This document shows, one piece after another, positions 15,908 through 25,985 of a DNA stretch of 64,000 nucleotides. Made by a program: the position numbers and the translations under genes. A model generated the notes under the pieces. That model searched no databases. It was not told the origin of the DNA and saw only the letters and a list, made by a program, of their open reading frames with translations. Every line of letters starts with the position of its first letter. Position 1 is the first letter of the stretch. This stretch comes from Paracyclopina nana (lineage: Eukaryota > Arthropoda > Copepoda > Cyclopoida > Cyclopettidae), in contig JAGUCH010000003.1 of assembly GCA_019096065.1 (NCBI GenBank), forward strand, positions 5,270,001 through 5,334,000, read 5' to 3'.

Positions 15908-18900
15908 GTGGCCAATTTAAAATATCACACTCTTCAAGAATTCGTCCTTTGACTTTGAGGCCTAAATGAATACTACACTGACAATCGATACGGAAAAGTG
16001 CTTCAGCGGCTTGGAGAGCGCATTTATGCTACAAGGCTAACGCTGCTTTCTCGAGTTGATAGCACCGGTTTATACAGGATTTTATAGTAGCAAGCGAGGG
16101 AGTCTGGACGGGGATGCGCCACGAGAAAGCCCTACAAATGATGAAATCTTCAGACATTCATCCAAAAAGAAAAAAGCGTATGCGTGGCACAAACATCGTT
16201 TTTCGTTTTTACATTCTTTATCCGCGAGCGTAGCAACACAGAATTCTTACTTGCATGAATTGGTCGCATTTTTGAGGCTTTCCTTACTTTTTTAAGGCCA
16301 ACTAGTCGTCTGATGCAATACTTCAGGAATGCTACATCACAGGTGTGCTCTCAAGATGTGAAATATTGCTTTAGAATAACATTTAGAATAGCTAACTTTT
16401 GAATATCTGCCTATATTAATCAATAAACCCTTTCGTTTTTGTAAACGCATTTAGTGTACTGTAATCGCAAAAAATTACTGCAATATGCAATGGAGAAAAA
16501 GGCCATTTAATATAGTAGAACAATTTGGGATTGGAATAGGTAATCAAAAATTATTGACTGAGCCGTTGAACGCGCCCCAATGACGGCAATTTTTCAAACA
16601 AAATTACCTATACCGTGCGCGCGTAAAATCAACCCTATTTGAATATTAGAATAGCTTGAATGTTCGAAAGAATGCCGATTTAAGTGAGGCCTATAATTTT
16701 TCTGCTCAATATGAAAGTATTTTTTATTCATGCCCGCTTGAAAATATGCGCTACTTTATCCTTCTAAGATGAATCAGTCCTCGAAGCTAAATTGTCACGG
16801 TAGACCATGCTCCATTTTTGGAGCCAAATCACCTGACTTCTATGAACCAATGGAGAATTTTCTTTCAGTGATGGTCTCTTTAAATTAAGAAAGCGATTAA
16901 AATTATGCGCGTCCAGAACCGGCAATGTATCAGGCGAGTACAGTACTTGCGAATAAAGGCCCACTTTTCTGGGGCAAGTTTGTATGGACGAGGCTTTAAA
17001 ATTATAACTTCAGCATACTAAATTACATGTGATATTCAAAGAGTAGTTTTCACATGAAGTGTAGCCAAAAACTGCTTTTTGAAAACATTCCCAAATTTGT
17101 GCCATTTCTACTCTCATATAAATGCATATTTGATTGTGCGATCAACCTTCAATTCGTGAATCTAAAGAAAATCAAGACATATTTGTACCTTGAAATTATA
17201 TGTTCGTTTACAAATAAATCTGCTTTTAAAATGTGAGCAAAGACCTATCGGGGATTGCAAAAATAATTGAAGTTCTACTGGACACTTGGAAAGGGATCAA
17301 CAATAATTTTCTATTCTTCCAAATATGAGCTAAAATTGTAAAAAAGCTACCCCTGTCGTCGGAAGAAGTTAAGCGCATCTCTCAACCTTTCCGCTATTCT
17401 TCCAATTTAAAGAGCAACAAAAGTTACTGTTTTCATCATAACGAAATCCAAAAATAACTCTTAATTACAGGTGTTACATTTACTACCACCTTTGCCAAAT
17501 TAATTAAAAGTACCAAATTAATTAAAAGTAAAAACCAATGTATCTTACAATTCTAAGATAAATTAGTTTCAGAACTTAGGACAATTTTTAAGAATGTAAT
17601 TGTTCATGCTTTTCATCTCGGATAGAAAATGTCTGAGAAGGTTCCCTCAACATTATTGAAGTGTGATTTGAAAATAGAAATGGTGAAAGAAACCCTAATA
17701 GAAACCAGAATTTAAATTGGACGTATTTTTGGCAGACGGCTTTGAAATTCTAATTGATGCCTTTGTGAGATCCGAAGCAACCTTGGGAAATCAATGTGCA
17801 AAGCAAAGATTGCGAGATTGGAGGAATGATAAGAAAAGTTGCTTTAGTCATAACTGAAATGAAAAATCTTAAAAAAGAAAATTCAACAAAAATTGAAAGA
17901 TGAATTTACTCTATGTAGCCCCAACCAGAAATTTTCCCAAGTTTTCTGAAAGTTATTGTAATGTGTTAGCACTGCTTCGTTTTACCCAGGTTGAGTTTAT
18001 GTCGTTATGTAACATTAACTTCCGTACCACCTATGAAAAAAATTTGAGAAAAATCGAATGTGACACGGAAAATTGCAATTTCGATTTTACCTAGGTGTCA
18101 AGGCAGTTAATGTTACATAACGACTAGAACTCTATGTTGATAAAACGTATAAGTTTCACTGAGGATTTTTTTGCCGTATGAGGGCCCAGAATTTCTGGTT
18201 GGGGCATGATTGAAAATACCATTTCCCTTTGAACTTTCAAAATATTTAGTAGTATATGTATTAAATTAAATTATTAATTCGATAATTTAATTCATCTCTA
18301 CTGATTGAAGATCAAGGCTGAATTTATGCGGTTGCCTTGAGATAATAATGTGAGAATCTGGTTGCACAGAGCTAGAGATATGAGAATTTTTCAGTGCCAC
18401 ATTTTGAGTGCGGCTACGAGCCTTTTATGAAATTGGCATCTACATTTTACATGACATGAATTAGAGCATTTGGAAACGTGCACGTACAATTGAATTAGCA
18501 TTAAAGCCCTCTCAAGGAAGGACTGCACATCCCGAAAAAACATTGCAATTATGGAAGAAGAGATTTCTCAGAACACGAAACGCGAGGATGCTATGATGTA
18601 GTGAGCTAACTAGACCAGACATTTTAAAAAAGATAGTAAATTGAAAGTACGATGCTTCAAAATTGACCGAAGATCAATTTAAAAGGCTAGCGTCATACTT
18701 CGTAATAAAAACAATAGCGAGCTTAAAACTATTATAATTGTCTATGATTGGTCACATTTATGGCAAGTTGCAGTCAACAAAGTGCTGTAATTTCAAAGAT
18801 GGAAATTATTTTTGCTTAAGAAGCTTTTCATAAGCTAATTTGATGGTTTAATGTTATTATCTGCTTGAGTGCACACATGCTTGGTGATTTTTCGTCGCTC

Positions 18901-19635
18901 TTAGACCACTGTGCAGGGGATCTTGCGGTATTACTCGCACTCTGTCTGTTCCACAGGTGAGTGAGCTAGTGGGCATGCCACACGGAAAAGAAACTTACAA
19001 CAAGCAGTTCCCTCTTGAAATTGGACAGCTTAGAGCCCTCCTGCTACAAACTATGGCTTCTTTGAGTCGAGTGTCAAAAACATAATTGGTTGCGCAGTCT
19101 CAACAGCAAAATGGTTGCTCGCTACTTGCCAAAAAGGTAAAAAGACCTAAAAGTGATTGAAAAGCAAGATTAGTTGAAAGCAAAATAATAATTTTGTCAT
19201 TTCATTAGGTGACGATTTTAATTTAAAATTCGGATTTTGTTAACCGGTTGTAATTTGGAATTCGGAGGTTTTTCTTAAATTGATTGACATTTTTCAAAAA
19301 TGTCTACGCAATCACCAGGTGGTGAACCGAGATGCTGGCTAGTTTTCAGCAACGCAATCAGCATTTACTCAACGAGCCAAATACATATTTTAAAAAAACT
19401 AACGAGAACTCGTAACGGAAGAAAAAGAGTAATTATGATGACTGCAACACCATTTCTCGGCGGCTATAGAAAATTAAAGCTTCAATTGCTCATAATAATG
19501 CAGTTGAGCGAGAGAGCAGAAAAAACCACAGTTACATTGCAGCAGCACAATCAGGCTAGTGCTGTTATTTTCACACAACAGTAGTTGGTGCTCTTGGCAT
19601 CGTTACTGTAAAAGGTCTAGCAGTAGAGATCAACC
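15908..19635. other. Gene-poor AT-rich region
   Basis: Apart from the MITE at 17918-18205, nothing in these 3.7 kb supports a gene. Open frames are short, without recognisable domains or matching splice sites. The right end should contain the promoter of the sulfotransferase gene starting at 19636. Confidence 0.5.
17918..18205. mobile_element. MITE (about 288 bp) with terminal and subterminal inverted repeats
   Basis: The ends are GCCCCAACCAGAAATTT and its inverse (AATTTCTGGTTGGGGC). Inside them a perfect 20-bp inverted pair, GTCGTTATGTAACATTAACT at 18001-18020 and its complement at 18105-18124, gives a second stem. There is no coding capacity. The target duplication is not clear, so the superfamily is not assigned. 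Confidence 0.75.
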
Positions 19636-21900
19636 ATGCTGAGCTGCAACAAGAGATTTTGGCATCTTAGAAGGTGCAAAATACCATAATTTTTTCTTAT
19701 GGACTAAAAACACGAATATGCATTTTTTACCCTTTGCTTTGCAGAGTTTCAGAGCTTATTGCTCTTGTGTCTGTGTCCACAACGTTGTTTTTGTTCATAC
19801 AGACAAGAGAGCTGTCGCATCGACTGCATGAAATACAAGACCCTAATATTGATTTGTCAGCCTTTGGAAGCATCAAAATCGACAGTGGCAAATCGGGGGG
19901 AATTGCGGACATCACCAAGCCAAAAGCTTACAGGTCTAGAGAGCTTTCCAACGAAAAAATTCGGGTAAAGATTAAAAAAAACACCTTCCAAGCTCTATTT
20001 TTTTACTCTGTGCTTCACAATAGTTGAACCCTCTCGAGCTGAATAATACGCGGAAAGCAAAGAAGGAAGTGCTGTTTTTCAACCGCGTTCCCAAAGTTGG
20101 ATCTCAAACCACCATGGAGCTCTTGAAGAGCTTGAGTGTGAAAAATCAATTCAGCTACCATAAAGACAGAACTCAGAAGGTGGAAACCATCAAGCTAACC
20201 TACAATGAGGAAAAATGGTTGGCCAACTTGATCAACTATTTTGAACCGCCATCAGTATATGTCAAGCATGTTTGCTTTGTCAATTTCACGCAGTAAGTGC
20301 CGCAAACGGGTTATAGTTTACTTAAGTACGCTTCAACTTAGACTGGTGCTTTTTTCAGGTTTGACATGGACATGCCTATTTATGTGAACTTGGTCAGAGA
20401 TCCGGTGGAAAGGGTCATTTCTTGGTATTATTACGTCAGGGCGCCCTGGTATTTTGTGGAGAGAAAAAGGGCCTTTCCAGAGCTGCCTTTGCCCAATCCT
20501 AATTGGCTCCGAAAGGTAATTTTTCACTGCTCTCACTTCATGCAAAATTAAGCCTTCTACGTTTGATTTATTTGTACGATTTTTAAAAATACTGTATCTG
20601 ATCAACAGTGGCAGAACTACTACTAAACGAGAGAAAATTATTACCTTTTGTTGCAAAAAAGTAAACATTTTAAGATCCCTTTAAATTAAGCCTATTGTAT
20701 AAATTCAAAAGCACAATTTGTGGCATGGCTAAAAACTGACGCCAGATGATCAATTGCTTTTGTAGGATTTTGAGACTTGCGTGAAAAGGGGCGACAAAGA
20801 GTGCACTTATCAAGATGGGGATGAACGCGACGATTTTGGCCAACTGACTGAATTCTTCTGTGGCCAAGACGACGAATGCACGTAAGTACAAATAGAAACA
20901 GCTTGTGAAAATAGAGTTCTGCCACGGTTGGTCGATACAAATTCAAAATTTGCGATGATGACCAATTTTGAGTTTCTATCAACCAGGATTTTGAAAGCTG
21001 TGTCAAAACTGGTGATAGCGAGTGCCGCTACATTCGCGGCTCGAAGCGAGATGGTTTTGCTGACCATCGGAGGCAGACCATGTTTTTCTGTGGTCACAGT
21101 GATGATTGCACGTAAGTTTTGAGCATAGAGCTGGCATTTTTTTATATTGGCCCTCTACCCTCACAATATGGCACCACGCCGCCAAAATAAGCAATAAAAG
21201 GGGCACAGATGGTGATCCACACATGAGCTTGCACCCTGGGGTAATCTGAGCCAAGAACAATACGAATCCGAGAAAGTGCTTCACGCAGTAACTGTTTTAG
21301 CAATGGTTTCTTGTAGAGCAAAAATCAGGGTTTTTCATCCAAGTTTTCCCCTGCCCTCTGCTATTGACATAATCCCACTTGAGAAAAGTTCATCGTGATA
21401 AAAAGAAAATTCTTTCCCTGGTTTTTCTTTCTTCGGGAAGAAAGGAAAAATTGCGTCAATGACAATTCTTTATTAATCACCAAATGTATGCTTTATCTTT
21501 GCAGTGGCTTCAACACTGAGATTGCTATGAGGAAAGCAATGGAAAATGTGGAGAAAAATTATGCAGTTGTCGGCATTCTGGAGGAACTTAACAAAACCTT
21601 GACGGTTTTGGAGCATTACGTGCCACGTTTCTTCAAAGGAGCATTGAATACGTATTGGAGTACGTATTTGCGACCACTGCAGCATATATCTAGACCCCAA
21701 CTGACCTTTTGCTTTAAATTGCAGATGAAGTGCACATGTACTCCAAGATCAATCGGAACATTTACAAGCCGCCAGTTGCCGAGTCAACCAAAGAAATTGT
21801 GAGGAAAAACTTCACGAGAGAAATTGAGTTTTTCGAGTTCTGCAAGCAGAGGCTACACAAGCAATATTTAGCTCTTAACTTGAATGAAGATCAGCCCTGA
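19636..21900 (+). CDS. pipe/UST-like: Pipe/uronyl 2-O-sulfotransferase with two mutually exclusive exons
   Basis: Exons 19636-19673, 19745-19964, 20024-20292, 20359-20515, one of 20766-20881 or 20987-21111, 21505-21659 and 21725-21900 give 376 or 379 codons. The protein is a type II Golgi enzyme: a short basic cytosolic tail (MLSCNKRFWHLRR), a signal anchor (ELIALVSVSTTLFLFIQ), a stem, then the HS2ST/UST/Pipe domain. The 5'-PAPS loop is FFNRVPKVGSQTTMELL and the 3' motif is NLVRDPVERVISWYYY. The later blocks VGILEELNKTLTVLEHYVP and EFFEFCKQRL are also typical. These enzymes put sulfate on uronic acids of glycosaminoglycans; Drosophila Pipe acts in eggshell patterning. AATAAA lies at 21904, right after the stop, and another sulfotransferase gene follows. 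Confidence 0.9.
20766..20881 (+). other. Alternative exon A of the Pipe/UST gene
   Basis: This 116-nt exon is bounded by TTGCTTTTGTAG and GTAAGT. It encodes DFETCVKRGDKECTY ... EFFCGQDDECT, the four-Cys segment found after the 3'-PAPS motif in UST and HS2ST. It is strongly acidic. Its length leaves a remainder of 2 on division by three, as does exon B, so each can be used but not both together. Confidence 0.85.
20987..21111 (+). other. Alternative exon B of the Pipe/UST gene
   Basis: This 125-nt exon is bounded by CAACCAG and GTAAGT and lies 105 bp after exon A. It encodes DFESCVKTGDSECRY ... MFFCGHSDDCT, which aligns with exon A including all four cysteines, three residues longer. It is rich in Arg/Lys where exon A is acidic. 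Splicing both exons in series would shift the frame, so use must be exclusive. Confidence 0.85.
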
Positions 21901-22080
21901 ATAAATAAAGCCATTTTCTTATGCGAACTATATTCCATACAAATGCAGATATATCTCAGCTTGGGGGAGTTGATGCAACTTTTTGGTAGCAGAAAGTTAC
22001 TCTTCTTCATCAGTAATGAACGCCGCGCGCGTTCTTTAGAAAGTTGCGCTCCTCATCCTGCTTGGCCAGTTTGTGGCCAG

Positions 22081-23048
22081 ATGTCTGTTTTGAAAGCAGC
22101 TAGGATTATGATCGCCCAAGTTTTAATGATGAGCTTTCTGCTATTGCCAACTCACACTAAATGTCACCAACCATACGACAAAAGCAGCTTACTGGAAAGT
22201 CTTCCCGAAAATGTGAGTCTCATAACGCATGCCCTAAGCTAAGAAGGTAAAAGACATCTTATTTCCTTCAGATCCATCAAAATTTTGTGGTTTGCGAAGA
22301 AGGTTATGCTTACTGTTGGAACCACAAAGCCGCGTCGACCTTAATTTTGCAACAGTTTGCAAAAATGTGCGGTTTCTCACCGCTGATCGATGCTCTCAAA
22401 ATTGATGCTACAAGGTGTGAACAACCAGGTTTGAACGTTAACAACTTTGAAGCAATTTTGAGCATTTCCAGGTTGATCAAATTTTCTGCACCGATAGACA
22501 ACGAAGAGCTTGTTCATTTTCTCAAGAGGAACAACACTTTTGTATTCACTACAGTGAGACATCCATTTTCACGCCTCGTCTCAGCATTCACGTGAGAAAG
22601 TGCATCATTATGTTGCAACATTATTAGGGGTTCATTGCTTTTTGTTAACCGCAGGAATCGATTCATAGACAACCCAGACTCGTGGCAGTCCAAGAAGTTC
22701 AAGCCTTTGATCCTGAAAAATCCAAACTCGACGCTAACATTTGAGGAATTTCTTAAGTTCATTATATCTCATCCAAGCTCGGAAAAATTGGACTCGCATT
22801 GGACTCCAATCACGGATCATTGCGTGCCTCATTTGATTCATTTTGATGCAATTCTAAAAGTAGAATCACTGGCAGCAGACTTTAATCGAGCATTTGGCCT
22901 TAGCCTTCCACTCCATGAGCCAAAAATTGGCCCTCGGGATATCACTACCTACTTCAGCAGCATAAGTAAAACTGACTTGAAACTGCTGTATAATATTTAT
23001 GCAAACGATTTCTTGTACTTCAATTACAATGCCAAAATTAACGCTTAA
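22081..23048 (+). CDS. Carbohydrate sulfotransferase of the CHST8-14 (HNK-1) type
   Basis: Three exons (22081-22212, 22272-22591, 22655-23048) join to 281 codons. The N-terminus has a hydrophobic anchor (IMIAQVLMMSFLLL) for a Golgi type II protein. The 5'-phosphosulfate loop is CWNHKAASTLILQQF, with the invariant Lys. The 3'-phosphate motif is TVRHPFSRLVSAFT. Later family blocks are HWTPITDHCVPHLIHFDAI and LLYNIYANDFLYFNY. Such enzymes 4-O- or 6-O-sulfate GalNAc in chondroitin/dermatan chains; the acceptor here is unknown. At 281 residues it is shorter than vertebrate members (about 350), mostly in the stem. It lies 180 bp downstream of the Pipe-like gene on the same strand, so two glycan sulfotransferases sit together. 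Confidence 0.88.
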
Positions 23049-23601
23049 TTGTTTCACTACTCGAAATGGAGTTAATTCAGCATCAAAGCTGTAAAAATTC
23101 GTCTCCAGAAACAAAGAAAAAGCTGCTTTCCAAGTTGGATAAATCAACCAGGCCAGAACAAAAATGCTTAAAACCTTGCTTAAAACTTTAAAGTGTTCAG
23201 GTATAGAATGATTCAAACTCAAAAACAGCTGCATAATAAAAGATTGACACATTCCATCTGCTACTGTGAGTAATTTTTGCACAAAGCATATGCCAGAAAA
23301 TCTAGGAAAAACTAGTTTTGTTTCAGAGATGCTATGATTCATTTATGGTCACCTTTTCTTGACCAAGTTATGCAACAGACAATTTTCCTCGAACATTATA
23401 AGGTTTACTATTGCACATGCCACCAAATAACCAAGAGCTTTTTGACTCAGATAGAGTAAAAAATAAGTTAATGTATGCCTATTTCATTGAACAAAAGCAA
23501 GCAAAAGAGATTAAAGAGCAATTTGCTGAACTACTATGAGCTACGCAAACACCTTTTTATAAATATAAAAAAAGGAACATGTGCGACTCAGAGCTGAAAA
23601 G
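23049..23601. other. Intergenic spacer
   Basis: No gene is seen in these 550 bp. A minus-strand open frame overlapping the end of the sulfotransferase gene is a shadow. The right end leads into the TATA promoter of the next gene. Confidence 0.45.
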
Positions 23602-23640
23602 TATAAAAGACTTGAATACTGCTCGGTTTCCCATCAGTCA
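23602..23640 (+). promoter_or_regulatory. TATA box and TCAGT initiator
   Basis: TATAAAAG lies at 23602-23609. The arthropod-type initiator CATCAGTC has its A at 23636, 34 bp downstream of the first T. The ATG at 23649 follows 13 bases after the predicted start site, giving a very short leader as in the protease gene at 5306. Confidence 0.75.
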
Positions 23641-23648
23641 TCCTTAAA

Positions 23649-25985
23649 ATGAACGCTATTGCTATTTGCTTTTTGGTCATTGTTGGAATTCAAGTGGAGG
23701 CCAAAAAGGGTGGCCACGGAGGAGGCCAATCTGGAGGCCTAGGAGGAGGCCAATCTGGAGGCCATGGAGGAGGCCAACCAGGAGGAAAAGGTGGAGGTTA
23801 TTATGGAGTACCATTTGGCCTCTGTGGATCTGTATTTACTTGCCCTGTCGTGACAAGGCCTGTATTTTCTGATGGAGCATGCCCCTTCAACGCAACAGCT
23901 CCTCTTACACCCCCAGCCTGCACCGCAGAAGGAACTGTACGTATACAAAGCTTTCTTACTTAATCAGATGGCAAATAAATAGCTAACAGAAGATTGGGTA
24001 AGGCAAGAAAAGACTTTGAAAGCCTATGAGCTATTTAGTTACTCAGCACGAGTTTTTAAAAAGGAAAGCTGGCATTTTGCTATTATGCTATTGTTGGTAT
24101 CGTTTCATCTCGTGGCTGATGTGTTATCAAGGCTGTTGGCCCAGTTGGCAAATATACAGACTGTCCCGGAGATTACTGCACACTTAGAGATCAAAAGTAT
24201 GTATTACAAATTCGGGAAATATAAGACACAATGGATATCATTGGAAAGCTTGAATCTTTGGCCATCTTTTTTTGTTTCAATGGATAAAAGAAAAAGTAAA
24301 AAATTGAGAAAACTTAATTTTCTTGAGGTACCCTTAATTTTTTTCCCCCAAAAAAAGCAAATTGCCCAAACCGGCTATTTTTGGCCAATTCTGCTAGGCC
24401 ATTCCCAGCTATTTTTTTAAATTTTTTCATGAAAAATTTTGAAGCACTGTGCTGGCTCATCAGAAAGGTGGGATGATTGGAAAGGATATTTTTTAGTAAA
24501 AAGATAAAAGACAATAAGGCTACTGGCTACTAAAAAAAGTTTCAAAATTGTTTAAACAACACATCTTTGCGATTTTTTGTTTATGAAGATCAAATGTTTA
24601 ACCAATTTTAAGTGAAATTGAATAAATAATTTTTTCGGGGTCTGTATAAATTATATGCGTTACATGATTAAGATGACTTAGATGATCATCTTTGTCATCT
24701 ATATTTGTACCATTTTTGGTCCAAATATAGATGATTTTGGCCAATTTTCATCTGTATTTGTACCACCAATCTCCGGCATTTACAAGATGTATAAATATAG
24801 ATGATTTTTTGCTGTCGTCTATATTTGGACTAATTTAGATGATTGCAATTAGCTATGATGAGCTACTTTAAAGCTAATAATAAGTTGGACCCAAAATATT
24901 TTTAAAATACATTCTACCTGCCAATTTACCAAACTACATAAAAACTAAATAAAAAATTAAAATTAAGAGTTTCATAAGAATTTCCGAAATAAATTGAACT
25001 TTCAGAAATATTACTTAGCTTCATCAATGAAGCATGGGAAAGTAAGCCAAAAAAACCAACTTTTTGAATGATTTTTTGGAACAAAAATCAACTGAAATAT
25101 TGAACTTATGGCTCAAAATGTTTCAAGCCTTTTTGGCCCAAATAAATTAGAGCTATTATTTTAGTTCTTAAATAAGTTATTCTTGGATTTTCCATTCCAT
25201 GAAATGGAAAGTAATTATGATTGTTCTGATTATTTTTCCTAAATCAGGTTTTAATATAGCCATGTATTTATTATAAGGAGCAATATTTCAAAAAACATCA
25301 TATTTGCTTGAGCTTGGTTTAAGTCTGAAATCATCTAAATTTGGTCCAGATATAGATGACTGATCCAAGAATTATCTATAGTTATACCCCACTTGAGCAC
25401 AGGCAAGGAGCAGCCCAAATATAGATGAGGATTGTCAAAAATCATCTGAAAATGGTACAAATATAGATGACAAAGATGATCATCTAAGCCAACTAAATCA
25501 TCTAACGCATCTATATTTATACAGAGCGATTTTTTCGTGAAAGTGGCTTTTCATCAAATAAATTCAGGAAACTGGGCGTGAATTTTGAGTAACTATGAAT
25601 TTGTGGTCTTAATCAAAATTTGAATAAATACTTTTTAAAAATCTCATAACTAAAAAAGATGGCTTAAGTTTCAAGCCTTCCAACGGTATCCATTGTGTCT
25701 AGTATTTCTAGAAGTTTTAACACAAACTTTTGATTTCAAAGTGTACAGAAATCTCCGGGACAAACTGTATATACCTTTTTGCAAGCAGTTTCATTGCTGC
25801 GCATTTACAAAATTTTATCTCATTGAACATTTTCGCAGGTGTCAACCGTTACCGCATGTGCAGGTTGTAGAGCCTTAAATGGAACCATGTCAGGAGAGAC
25901 AGGGGTCACCATCTCCTTTACTTGCATGGCCTCCTACCACTCTGGAGAAACACAACTACGTGCCAGAGCTACAGCATGCGCATAA
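23649..25985 (+). CDS. Small secreted Gly-rich, Cys-containing protein
   Basis: Two exons (23649-23936 and 25839-25985) join in phase to 144 codons. A signal peptide (MNAIAICFLVIVGIQVEA) is followed by a Gly/Gln/Ser repeat (GGHGGGQSGGLGGGQSGG). The mature tail has spaced cysteines: LCGSVFTCPVV, FSDGACPF, PPACTAEG, then TACAGCRALNG, ISFTCMAS and a terminal ATACA. It looks like a structural, cuticle or antimicrobial-type secreted product, but no family is recognised. The 1.9-kb intron is by far the longest in the window because transposons have landed in it; extra exons inside cannot be excluded. Confidence 0.7.
24157..25767. mobile_element. Tc1/mariner-like MITE, copy 1, split by another transposon
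   Basis: The ends are CAGACTGTCCCGGAGAT and its inverse (ATCTCCGGGACAAACTG), flanked by TA on both sides (24155-24156 and 25768-25769), as expected of a Tc1/mariner insertion. It shares about 700 bp, end to end, with the copy at 59161-59880, both carrying terminal inverted repeats of over 100 bp. This copy is interrupted at 24638 by an 891-bp insertion. It sits in the intron of the Gly-rich gene and has no transposase frame. Confidence 0.85.
24638..25528. mobile_element. Non-autonomous DNA transposon with a 9-bp target duplication, nested
   Basis: The element is flanked by a perfect 9-bp repeat, ATTTTTTCG (24629-24637 and 25529-25537); the uninterrupted copy at 59.6 kb has only one such stretch. 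Terminal inverted repeats extend about 85 bp: TCTGTATAAATTATATGCG at the left matches TCTGTATAAATATAGATGCG read inward from the right. Both contain GATCATCTTTGTCATC. A 9-bp duplication fits Mutator-like elements best, with hAT (8 bp) a second choice. It carries many internal copies of CATCTATATTTG and no transposase. Confidence 0.85.

What the first reader, a model, noticed from the sequence alone, without database searches (positions are those of the whole stretch)
20516..21504. Mutually exclusive duplicated exons in a Pipe/UST sulfotransferase, acidic versus basic
Two adjacent exons (116 and 125 nt) encode homologous four-Cys segments starting DFE(T/S)CVK and ending FFCG..D(E/D)CT. Both have proper acceptors and GTAAGT donors and the same phase. 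Their lengths both leave remainder 2, so including both breaks the frame: exclusive use is built in. Exon A is strongly acidic and exon B basic, so one enzyme could switch acceptor glycan by splicing. Drosophila pipe is known to vary its sulfotransferase domain by alternative splicing, but by swapping whole 3' domains; a single swapped exon is a different solution to the same end.
Basis: partly seen in the sequence, partly recalled or inferred. Interest (0 to 1): 0.85.

Follow-up and report, generated by a model that had tools for sequence, protein, structure and literature searches.

The report
RNA-switched exon pair in a sulfotransferase
A gene for a sugar-sulfating enzyme, probably from an arthropod, carries two interchangeable versions of one small exon, and conserved base-pairing sequences in the surrounding introns look built to make the cell use one version or the other but not both.

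Summary
The exon pair is real. Exons A (20766-20881) and B (20987-21111) are homologous, share phase, and each gives an open frame (376, 379 aa); including both or neither brings an early stop. B is near-neutral (7 K/R, 8 D/E), not basic. A paralogue on contig C1 keeps both exons although synonymous sites are saturated; dN/dS is 0.015 (A) and 0.061 (B). A third paralogue has only an A-type exon.

Their conserved blocks, D (20592-20619) and S (20914-20940), are reverse complements: 24-25 bp, about -36 kcal/mol, 0 of 2000 shuffles in either gene. S can instead pair, less convincingly, with H beside the B acceptor. I propose a two-state RNA switch: D-S loops out A and frees B; S-H masks the B acceptor, so A is used. 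Exclusive splicing by competing RNA pairing is known, and reported for terminal exons of Drosophila pip; this placement and topology look like a new variant. No RNA data were available; the acceptor-glycan switch is untested.

The parts
19636..19673 (+). Exon 1 (1b): start codon, MLSCNKRFWHLR
   Evidence: Spliced frame; similar first exon in the C3 paralogue
19745..19964 (+). Exon 2: hydrophobic stretch (membrane anchor by inference) and stem
20024..20292 (+). Exon 3: NRVPKVGSQT (PAPS-binding motif by recall) part of the sulfotransferase domain
20359..20515 (+). Exon 4, last constant exon before the pair; donor AAG|GTAATT
20592..20619 (+). Element D: conserved intronic block that pairs with S (24 bp, -37.5 kcal/mol)
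   Evidence: Conserved with the C1 paralogue (intron 4-A 0/1000 shuffles); complementary to S (0/2000 shuffles; pairs); 20-base core exact only in these two genes of the genome
20766..20881 (+). Alternative exon A, acidic version (DFETCVKRGDKECTYQDGDERDDFGQLTEFFCGQDDEC)
   Evidence: dN/dS 0.015 against C1 exon A
20914..20949 (+). Element S: shared arm. 20914-20940 pairs with D; 20928-20949 pairs with H; overlap 20928-20940
   Evidence: 18-base core exact only in these two genes of the genome
20966..20986 (+). Element H: third conserved stretch, includes the exon B acceptor; local hairpin with S
   Evidence: 18 bp, -16.8; core 20968-20984, 16 of 17 bases as in C1, weaker statistics (11/2000 and 15/2000 shuffles)
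20987..21111 (+). Alternative exon B, near-neutral version (DFESCVKTGDSECRYIRGSKRDGFADHRRQTMFFCGHSDDC)
   Evidence: dN/dS 0.061 against C1 exon B; motif DHR(R/S)Q...FCGH shared with two more distant paralogues
21505..21659 (+). Exon 5, constant; carries the premature stops of the A+B and of the skipped transcript
21725..21900 (+). Exon 6 with the stop codon
19111..19136 (+). Possible alternative first exon 1a (MVARYLPK), in frame with exon 2
   Evidence: resembles the first exon modelled for the C1 paralogue

Best explanation
This is a pair of mutually exclusive exons in a carbohydrate sulfotransferase gene of the HS2ST/UST/Pipe kind, chosen by competing RNA secondary structures. One intronic arm, S, lies between the two exons and has two partners. 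Partner D lies in the intron upstream of exon A: D-S pairing puts exon A in a loop, brings the exon 4 donor near exon B and leaves H free, so exon B is joined. Partner H overlaps or adjoins the acceptor of exon B: S-H pairing masks that acceptor, so exon A is joined. D and H compete for the same 13-15 bases of S. Transcripts with both exons or neither carry an early stop, which cleans up mistakes. Shown by computation: the exons, the frames, selection on both exons, conservation and complementarity of D and S, and overlap of the two predicted pairings. Inferred: that the pairings form in the nucleus; that D-S gives B and S-H gives A; that D-S is the default (about 9-12 kcal/mol more stable) with A favoured when exon 4 joins A before S is made or when a protein blocks D-S; and any change in substrate.
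For: Frame logic and open isoforms. Paralogue C1 has A and B in the same order, same lengths (116, 125), no stops. Synonymous sites saturated (dS 1.63 to 2.56) while dN/dS is 0.015 for A and 0.061 for B. Of 7 introns compared between the two genes only 4-A and A-B are conserved, each 0 of 1000 shuffles; the other five are at chance (the first of them joins non-equivalent first exons). D and S blocks: 60 of 68 alignment columns identical, gaps counted as differences, versus 45 of 98 fourfold sites, Fisher p 1.3e-8. D-S duplex -36.0 (window) and -35.7 (C1), 0 of 2000 shuffles each, and the best of 14,443 and of 11,157 prefiltered 25-base window pairs in the two genes. Ensemble pairing probability of D-S 0.98 and 0.95. 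The A-only paralogue C3, with 60- and 58-nt introns around its exon, shows no clear trace of the elements (8 comparisons, best 11 of 300 shuffles). Exact core words of S and D: 2 genomic places each, these two genes.
Against: No transcript was seen. Between the two genes there is no compensatory double change in D-S: by eye in the pairs, one G-C to G-U, one pair gained, one lost, one bulge; covariation does not support the helix, conservation plus complementarity does. A looser alignment scoring left the 4-A block inside its shuffles' maximum (21.5 against 23.0 of 200). The S-H hairpin is weaker: 11/2000 and 15/2000 shuffles, whole A-B intron folding z -0.84 in the window and -2.98 in C1, and at equilibrium the S-H pairs have probability 0.00 in C1; in the window the mean is 0.50 because part of the stem coexists with D-S, so competition there is partial. 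In C1 the hairpin ends 13 nt from exon B. Raw full-intron duplex energies do not single out 4A-AB: window 4A-B5 is -77.6 and C1 12-4A -130.0, both between longer introns. With two genes the elements rest on one comparison.
Confidence: 0.78

Rival explanations
1. Mutually exclusive exons enforced only by frame and nonsense-mediated decay; D, S and H are conserved for another reason such as protein-binding sites.
For: Both wrong products carry stops 129-140 nt before the last junction, enough in principle for decay.
Against: Does not explain why D and S, found by conservation alone, are reverse complements over 24-25 bp in both genes.
Confidence: 0.1
2. Simple docking/selector loop: D-S chooses B; A is chosen by default splice-site strength or timing, and the S-H hairpin is incidental.
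For: D-S statistics are far stronger than S-H; S-H has no weight in the C1 equilibrium ensemble; H in C1 could be a conserved branch-point region.
Against: H is the same in 16 of 17 bases in both genes although its distance to the acceptor differs (2 versus 15 nt, from positions), and it forms the same predicted pairs in both.
Confidence: 0.35
3. One exon is a decayed or never-used duplicate.
For: No RNA evidence for either exon.
Against: Both exons free of stops and under purifying selection across a saturated divergence; A-type is the sole version in paralogue C3 and the B-type motif occurs in two other paralogues.
Confidence: 0.03
4. Steric or spliceosome-type exclusivity: the A-B intron is too short, or one exon uses the minor spliceosome.
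For: The A-B intron is only 105 nt (84 in C1).
Against: Several other introns of these three genes are 56-71 nt, so 84-105 nt should be spliceable; both donors are GTAAG, U2-like.
Confidence: 0.04
5. The isoforms do not differ in acceptor glycan; the swapped four-Cys module alters stability, oligomer contacts, protein partners or Golgi location.
For: The residues that differ (HRRQ insert, His versus Gln after CG) vary among paralogues, so they are not catalytic constants.
Against: An eight-unit charge difference (four in C1) in an enzyme expected to handle polyanions.
Confidence: 0.45

Closest known systems
Drosophila pip (pipe) mutually exclusive 3' exon clusters
   Same: Same sulfotransferase kind (by name); exclusive choice among duplicated exons; reported, second-hand, to depend on competing RNA structures (PMC9013439, section 6 read and passages seen)
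   Different: There, eight tandem clusters of terminal exons, which that paper treats as 3'-UTR exons; here one internal coding pair of 116/125 nt with a fixed C-terminus. Most likely independent, but no Drosophila sequence was compared
Dscam1 exon 6 docking site and selectors
   Same: An upstream intronic arm pairs with an arm just upstream of the chosen exon and loops out what lies between (PMC6071210 introduction and discussion read; PMC11802352 passages)
   Different: 48 exons and one docker versus two exons; here the shared arm sits between the exons and its second partner is the downstream acceptor region
Human ATE1 exons 7a/7b, elements R1, R3, R4
   Same: Two exons, one arm (R3) for which two partners (R1, R4) compete (passage in PMC11802352)
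   Different: Unrelated gene; the passage seen does not place a partner at an acceptor
srp, RIC-3, MRP1 bidirectional pairing
   Same: Two pairings decide the exon choice (PMC6071210 discussion)
   Different: There the two helices have separate arms; here they share one
Heparan sulfate 2-O-sulfotransferase (PDB 3f5f, 4ndz)
   Same: The only solved relative found (phmmer, E up to 1): 106 bits over residues 101-364; the four Cys of the swapped module align
   Different: Its module is 9 residues shorter (gap); alternative forms of it were not looked into

Membership tests
Mutually exclusive exon pair | Adjacent homologous exons, same phase, interchangeable | tested here: met
Mutually exclusive exon pair | Double inclusion and double skipping unproductive | tested here: met
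   Stops at codons 317 and 233; double inclusion also out of frame in paralogue C1
Mutually exclusive exon pair | Transcripts contain one exon, never both | not testable with these tools
   No RNA data
Mutually exclusive exon pair | Both exons under selection | tested here: met
   dN/dS 0.015 and 0.061 against paralogue C1
Competing-RNA-structure (docking/selector) control | Conserved complementary intronic arms flanking the skipped exon | tested here: met
Competing-RNA-structure (docking/selector) control | Two pairings that compete for one arm | tested here: inconclusive
   D and H overlap on 20928-20940, but S-H is only modestly above chance and has no weight in the C1 equilibrium ensemble
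Competing-RNA-structure (docking/selector) control | Compensatory base changes | tested here: not met
   No double change between the only two genes available (by eye, pairs); two sequences give little power
Competing-RNA-structure (docking/selector) control | Mutation and rescue alters exon choice | not testable with these tools
   Bench experiment
Sulfotransfer_2 (HS2ST/UST/Pipe kind) | Match to PF03567 above cut-off and to HS2ST | tested here: met
   68 bits, cut-off 22; 3f5f E 1.5e-29
Pipe orthologue | Groups with insect Pipe in a tree | not tested
   No insect Pipe sequence was at hand; the name rests on recall

The most novel reading that the evidence does not exclude
A bistable pre-mRNA switch with one shared arm: the same 13-15 bases either loop out the upstream exon or hide the acceptor of the downstream one, so a single binding choice both rejects one exon and exposes the other. 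It predates the split of two paralogues and lets each locus make two forms of a glycan sulfotransferase; the same enzyme kind would have acquired RNA-structure-driven exclusive splicing independently, and at a different exon, from Drosophila pip.
Probability: 0.45. Interest if true: 0.75.

Novelty: new variant of a known kind. Interest (0 to 1): 0.64.

Why it matters
The docking/selector model explains one of the two splices and leaves the other open (PMC6071210 discussion). Here two helices sharing one arm would give both halves of the choice within about 400 nt, small enough for a full minigene and structure-probing study. One genome offers natural controls: two switch genes, an A-only gene and genes with the B-type motif. 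If the isoforms differ in acceptor, splicing would set part of a sulfation pattern, and this kind of enzyme would have reached RNA-controlled exclusive splicing at two different exons.

Tried and rejected
Third copy of the exon in the window: none. Known RNA family over 19000-23100: 0 matches at gathering scores. Naive full-intron duplex energies: uninformative because long introns score lower, so 25-nt windows and conservation-defined blocks were used. A first, looser local alignment left D within the shuffles' maximum (21.5 against 23.0 of 200); stricter penalties gave 0 of 1000. Covariation: looked for by eye in the pairs, no compensatory change. A regular expression for other first exons returned nothing because its length rule was wrong; exon 1a was then checked directly. 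Species: 80 matches to cuticle family PF00379 (arthropod-type by recall) and 0 to odorant receptor family PF02949 (nothing rang in the controls either, so absence is not shown). No species was named.

Papers: 10 searches; several listings were partial (20 of 26, 20 of 3,278, 20 of 36, 8 of 47). No title or abstract start in the rows listed describes an internal mutually exclusive exon in a Pipe/UST/HS2ST gene; that says nothing beyond these rows. PMC3827500: passages, none about pip. PMC8051952: passages. The paper on Drosophila Pipe isoform specificities (Zhang 2009) was seen only as a reference-list entry and is not held. PMC3303723 was searched for pip and pipe: 0 hits.

Rows dropped: of 23 anchored rows the constant-region tree used 15 and the segment tree 14, picked by hand (second isoforms and most low-coverage rows left out; one row of 233 residues, C3y, was left out though shorter ones stayed). 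The rooted drawing shifts support labels; I cite the newick strings. One of 16 fetched regions was cut at 10,000 bases. One search was meant to search the loci too but only the window file was laid then; the loci were searched.

Full report
The window is G000:C3:5270001-5334000 of a 92-Mb, 10-contig genome. The genome has 80 matches to the cuticle family PF00379, which by recall points to an arthropod; no species was identified.

Gene. The exons 1 19636-19673, 2 19745-19964, 3 20024-20292, 4 20359-20515, A 20766-20881, B 20987-21111, 5 21505-21659 and 6 21725-21900 give a complete gene on the + strand. With A the product has 376 residues, with B 379. The B form matches Pfam Sulfotransfer_2 (68 bits, cut-off 22) and, among solved structures at E up to 1, only heparan sulfate 2-O-sulfotransferase (106 bits, residues 101-364). 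'Pipe/UST-like' is a fair label, but orthology to Pipe was not tested.

Observation. A and B are 55% identical (E 8e-13 within the window) and the window holds no third copy. Joining both gives a stop at codon 317, skipping both a stop at codon 233, 129 and 140 nt before the last exon junction. Exon B is not basic: 7 K/R, 8 D/E; A has 4 and 13.

Paralogues as natural tests. A protein search of the own genome found two close paralogues. The one on contig C1 (L039, minus strand) has both exons, same lengths and order, one A-type and one B-type. The one on C3 at 2.836 Mb (L040) has a single A-type exon between introns of 60 and 58 nt. In the constant-region tree the window and C1 genes pair (support 90) and C3 joins them (82); in the segment tree the three A exons separate from all else (96) and the two B exons group at 70 (newick strings; short alignments and hand-picked rows, so modest weight). 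B keeps the motif DHR(R/S)Q...FCGH that two more distant paralogues have. So B looks like the older version and A the derived one; the duplication most simply predates the three genes, with loss of B in C3. This is inference.

Selection. Between the window and C1 genes synonymous sites are saturated (dS 1.63 for exons 1-4, 2.56 for exons 5-6, 2.12 for A and for B), with dN/dS 0.080, 0.024, 0.015 and 0.061. Both alternative exons have therefore been kept working for a long time.

Intronic elements. Of seven introns compared between the two switch genes, five are at chance (one of these joins non-equivalent first exons); the two that flank exon A are conserved, 0 of 1000 dinucleotide shuffles reaching the observed score in each. 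A looser scoring left the 4-A block inside its shuffles' maximum, while A-B was clear in both. The blocks D (27 of 31 alignment columns identical) and S (33 of 37) are reverse complements of one another. Taken as conservation alone defined them, the D-S duplex is -36.0 kcal/mol in the window and -35.7 in C1, against shuffled means of -9.4 and -10.6, 0 of 2000 in both. Among prefiltered 25-nt window pairs between exon 3's end and exon 6 it ranks first of 14,443 and first of 11,157. In the whole genome the exact 18-base core of S and the exact 20-base core of D occur in these two genes only; up to two mismatches add 2 and 3 places, one of the three being S itself on the other strand. In the C3 gene the elements are not detected: 8 comparisons, the best 11 of 300.

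Second pairing. The 3' part of S also pairs with H, which ends at the exon B acceptor in the window and 13 nt before it in C1. The core of H is the same in 16 of 17 bases and the same pairs are predicted in both genes, but support is modest: 11 and 15 of 2000 shuffles; whole-intron folding in the window is not unusual (z -0.84). D and H use 20928-20940 of S in common. Forced-state folding puts D-S about 12 (window) and 9-10 (C1) kcal/mol below S-H; at equilibrium S-H has no weight in C1 and in the window is partly kept alongside D-S. If S-H matters it must act by timing or with protein help.

Mechanism proposed. D-S pairing loops out A and frees the B acceptor: B is joined. S-H pairing masks the B acceptor: A is joined. 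Since D-S is stronger, B would be the default once S is transcribed, and A would be favoured by splicing of exon 4 to A before S emerges or by a factor that blocks D-S. This direction is inferred from docking/selector systems (PMC6071210, abstract, introduction and discussion read) and not shown here. Frame and decay act as clean-up. Short-intron and minor-spliceosome explanations are disfavoured (several introns of 56-71 nt in these genes; GTAAG donors).

Against. There is no RNA evidence. There are no compensatory changes between the two genes (by eye). The S-H half could be incidental.

What is known. Mutually exclusive splicing by competing RNA structures is an established kind, with Dscam, 14-3-3zeta, Mhc, srp, RIC-3, MRP1, DNM1, ATE1 and others named (PMC6071210 sections read; PMC10790352 and PMC11802352 passages). 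In ATE1 two elements compete for a third. [quoted passage not shown] An internal pair in this enzyme kind, with a shared arm lying between the exons, appeared in none of the rows listed by my ten paper searches.

Verdict: real, most likely functional, and mechanistically richer than first described; a new variant of a known kind.

Noticed in passing
window 19111-19136: A second possible first exon (MVARYLPK, in frame with exon 2) resembling the first exon modelled for the C1 paralogue, while exon 1b resembles the first exon of the C3 paralogue; suggests alternative promoters.
   Followed up: partly
window 22251-23048: A second, different Sulfotransfer_2 gene directly downstream on the same strand.
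   Followed up: partly
window 18002-18020 and 18105-18123: Inverted repeat with 19-base arms upstream of the gene, seen by eye; possibly a small mobile element.
   Followed up: no
L040 1992-2003: The A-only paralogue seems to use a GC-AG intron after exon 4 (AAAG|GCATAC).
   Followed up: no
L049 (C6:3428784-3429173): A distant paralogue ends its segment in FCGQDDECT, the same tail as exon A, in an otherwise different protein; convergence or old sharing.
   Followed up: no
window 20592-20619 and 20966-20986: D and H both contain ATCAAC(C)AG, so the two partners of S may descend from one sequence copied with the exon.
   Followed up: no
window 23616-23963: Open frame of a small Gly-rich protein with GGHGGGQ-like repeats and no Pfam match.
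   Followed up: no
whole genome G000: At least 74 exon-level matches to Sulfotransfer_2, which seems many for a 92-Mb genome.
   Followed up: no
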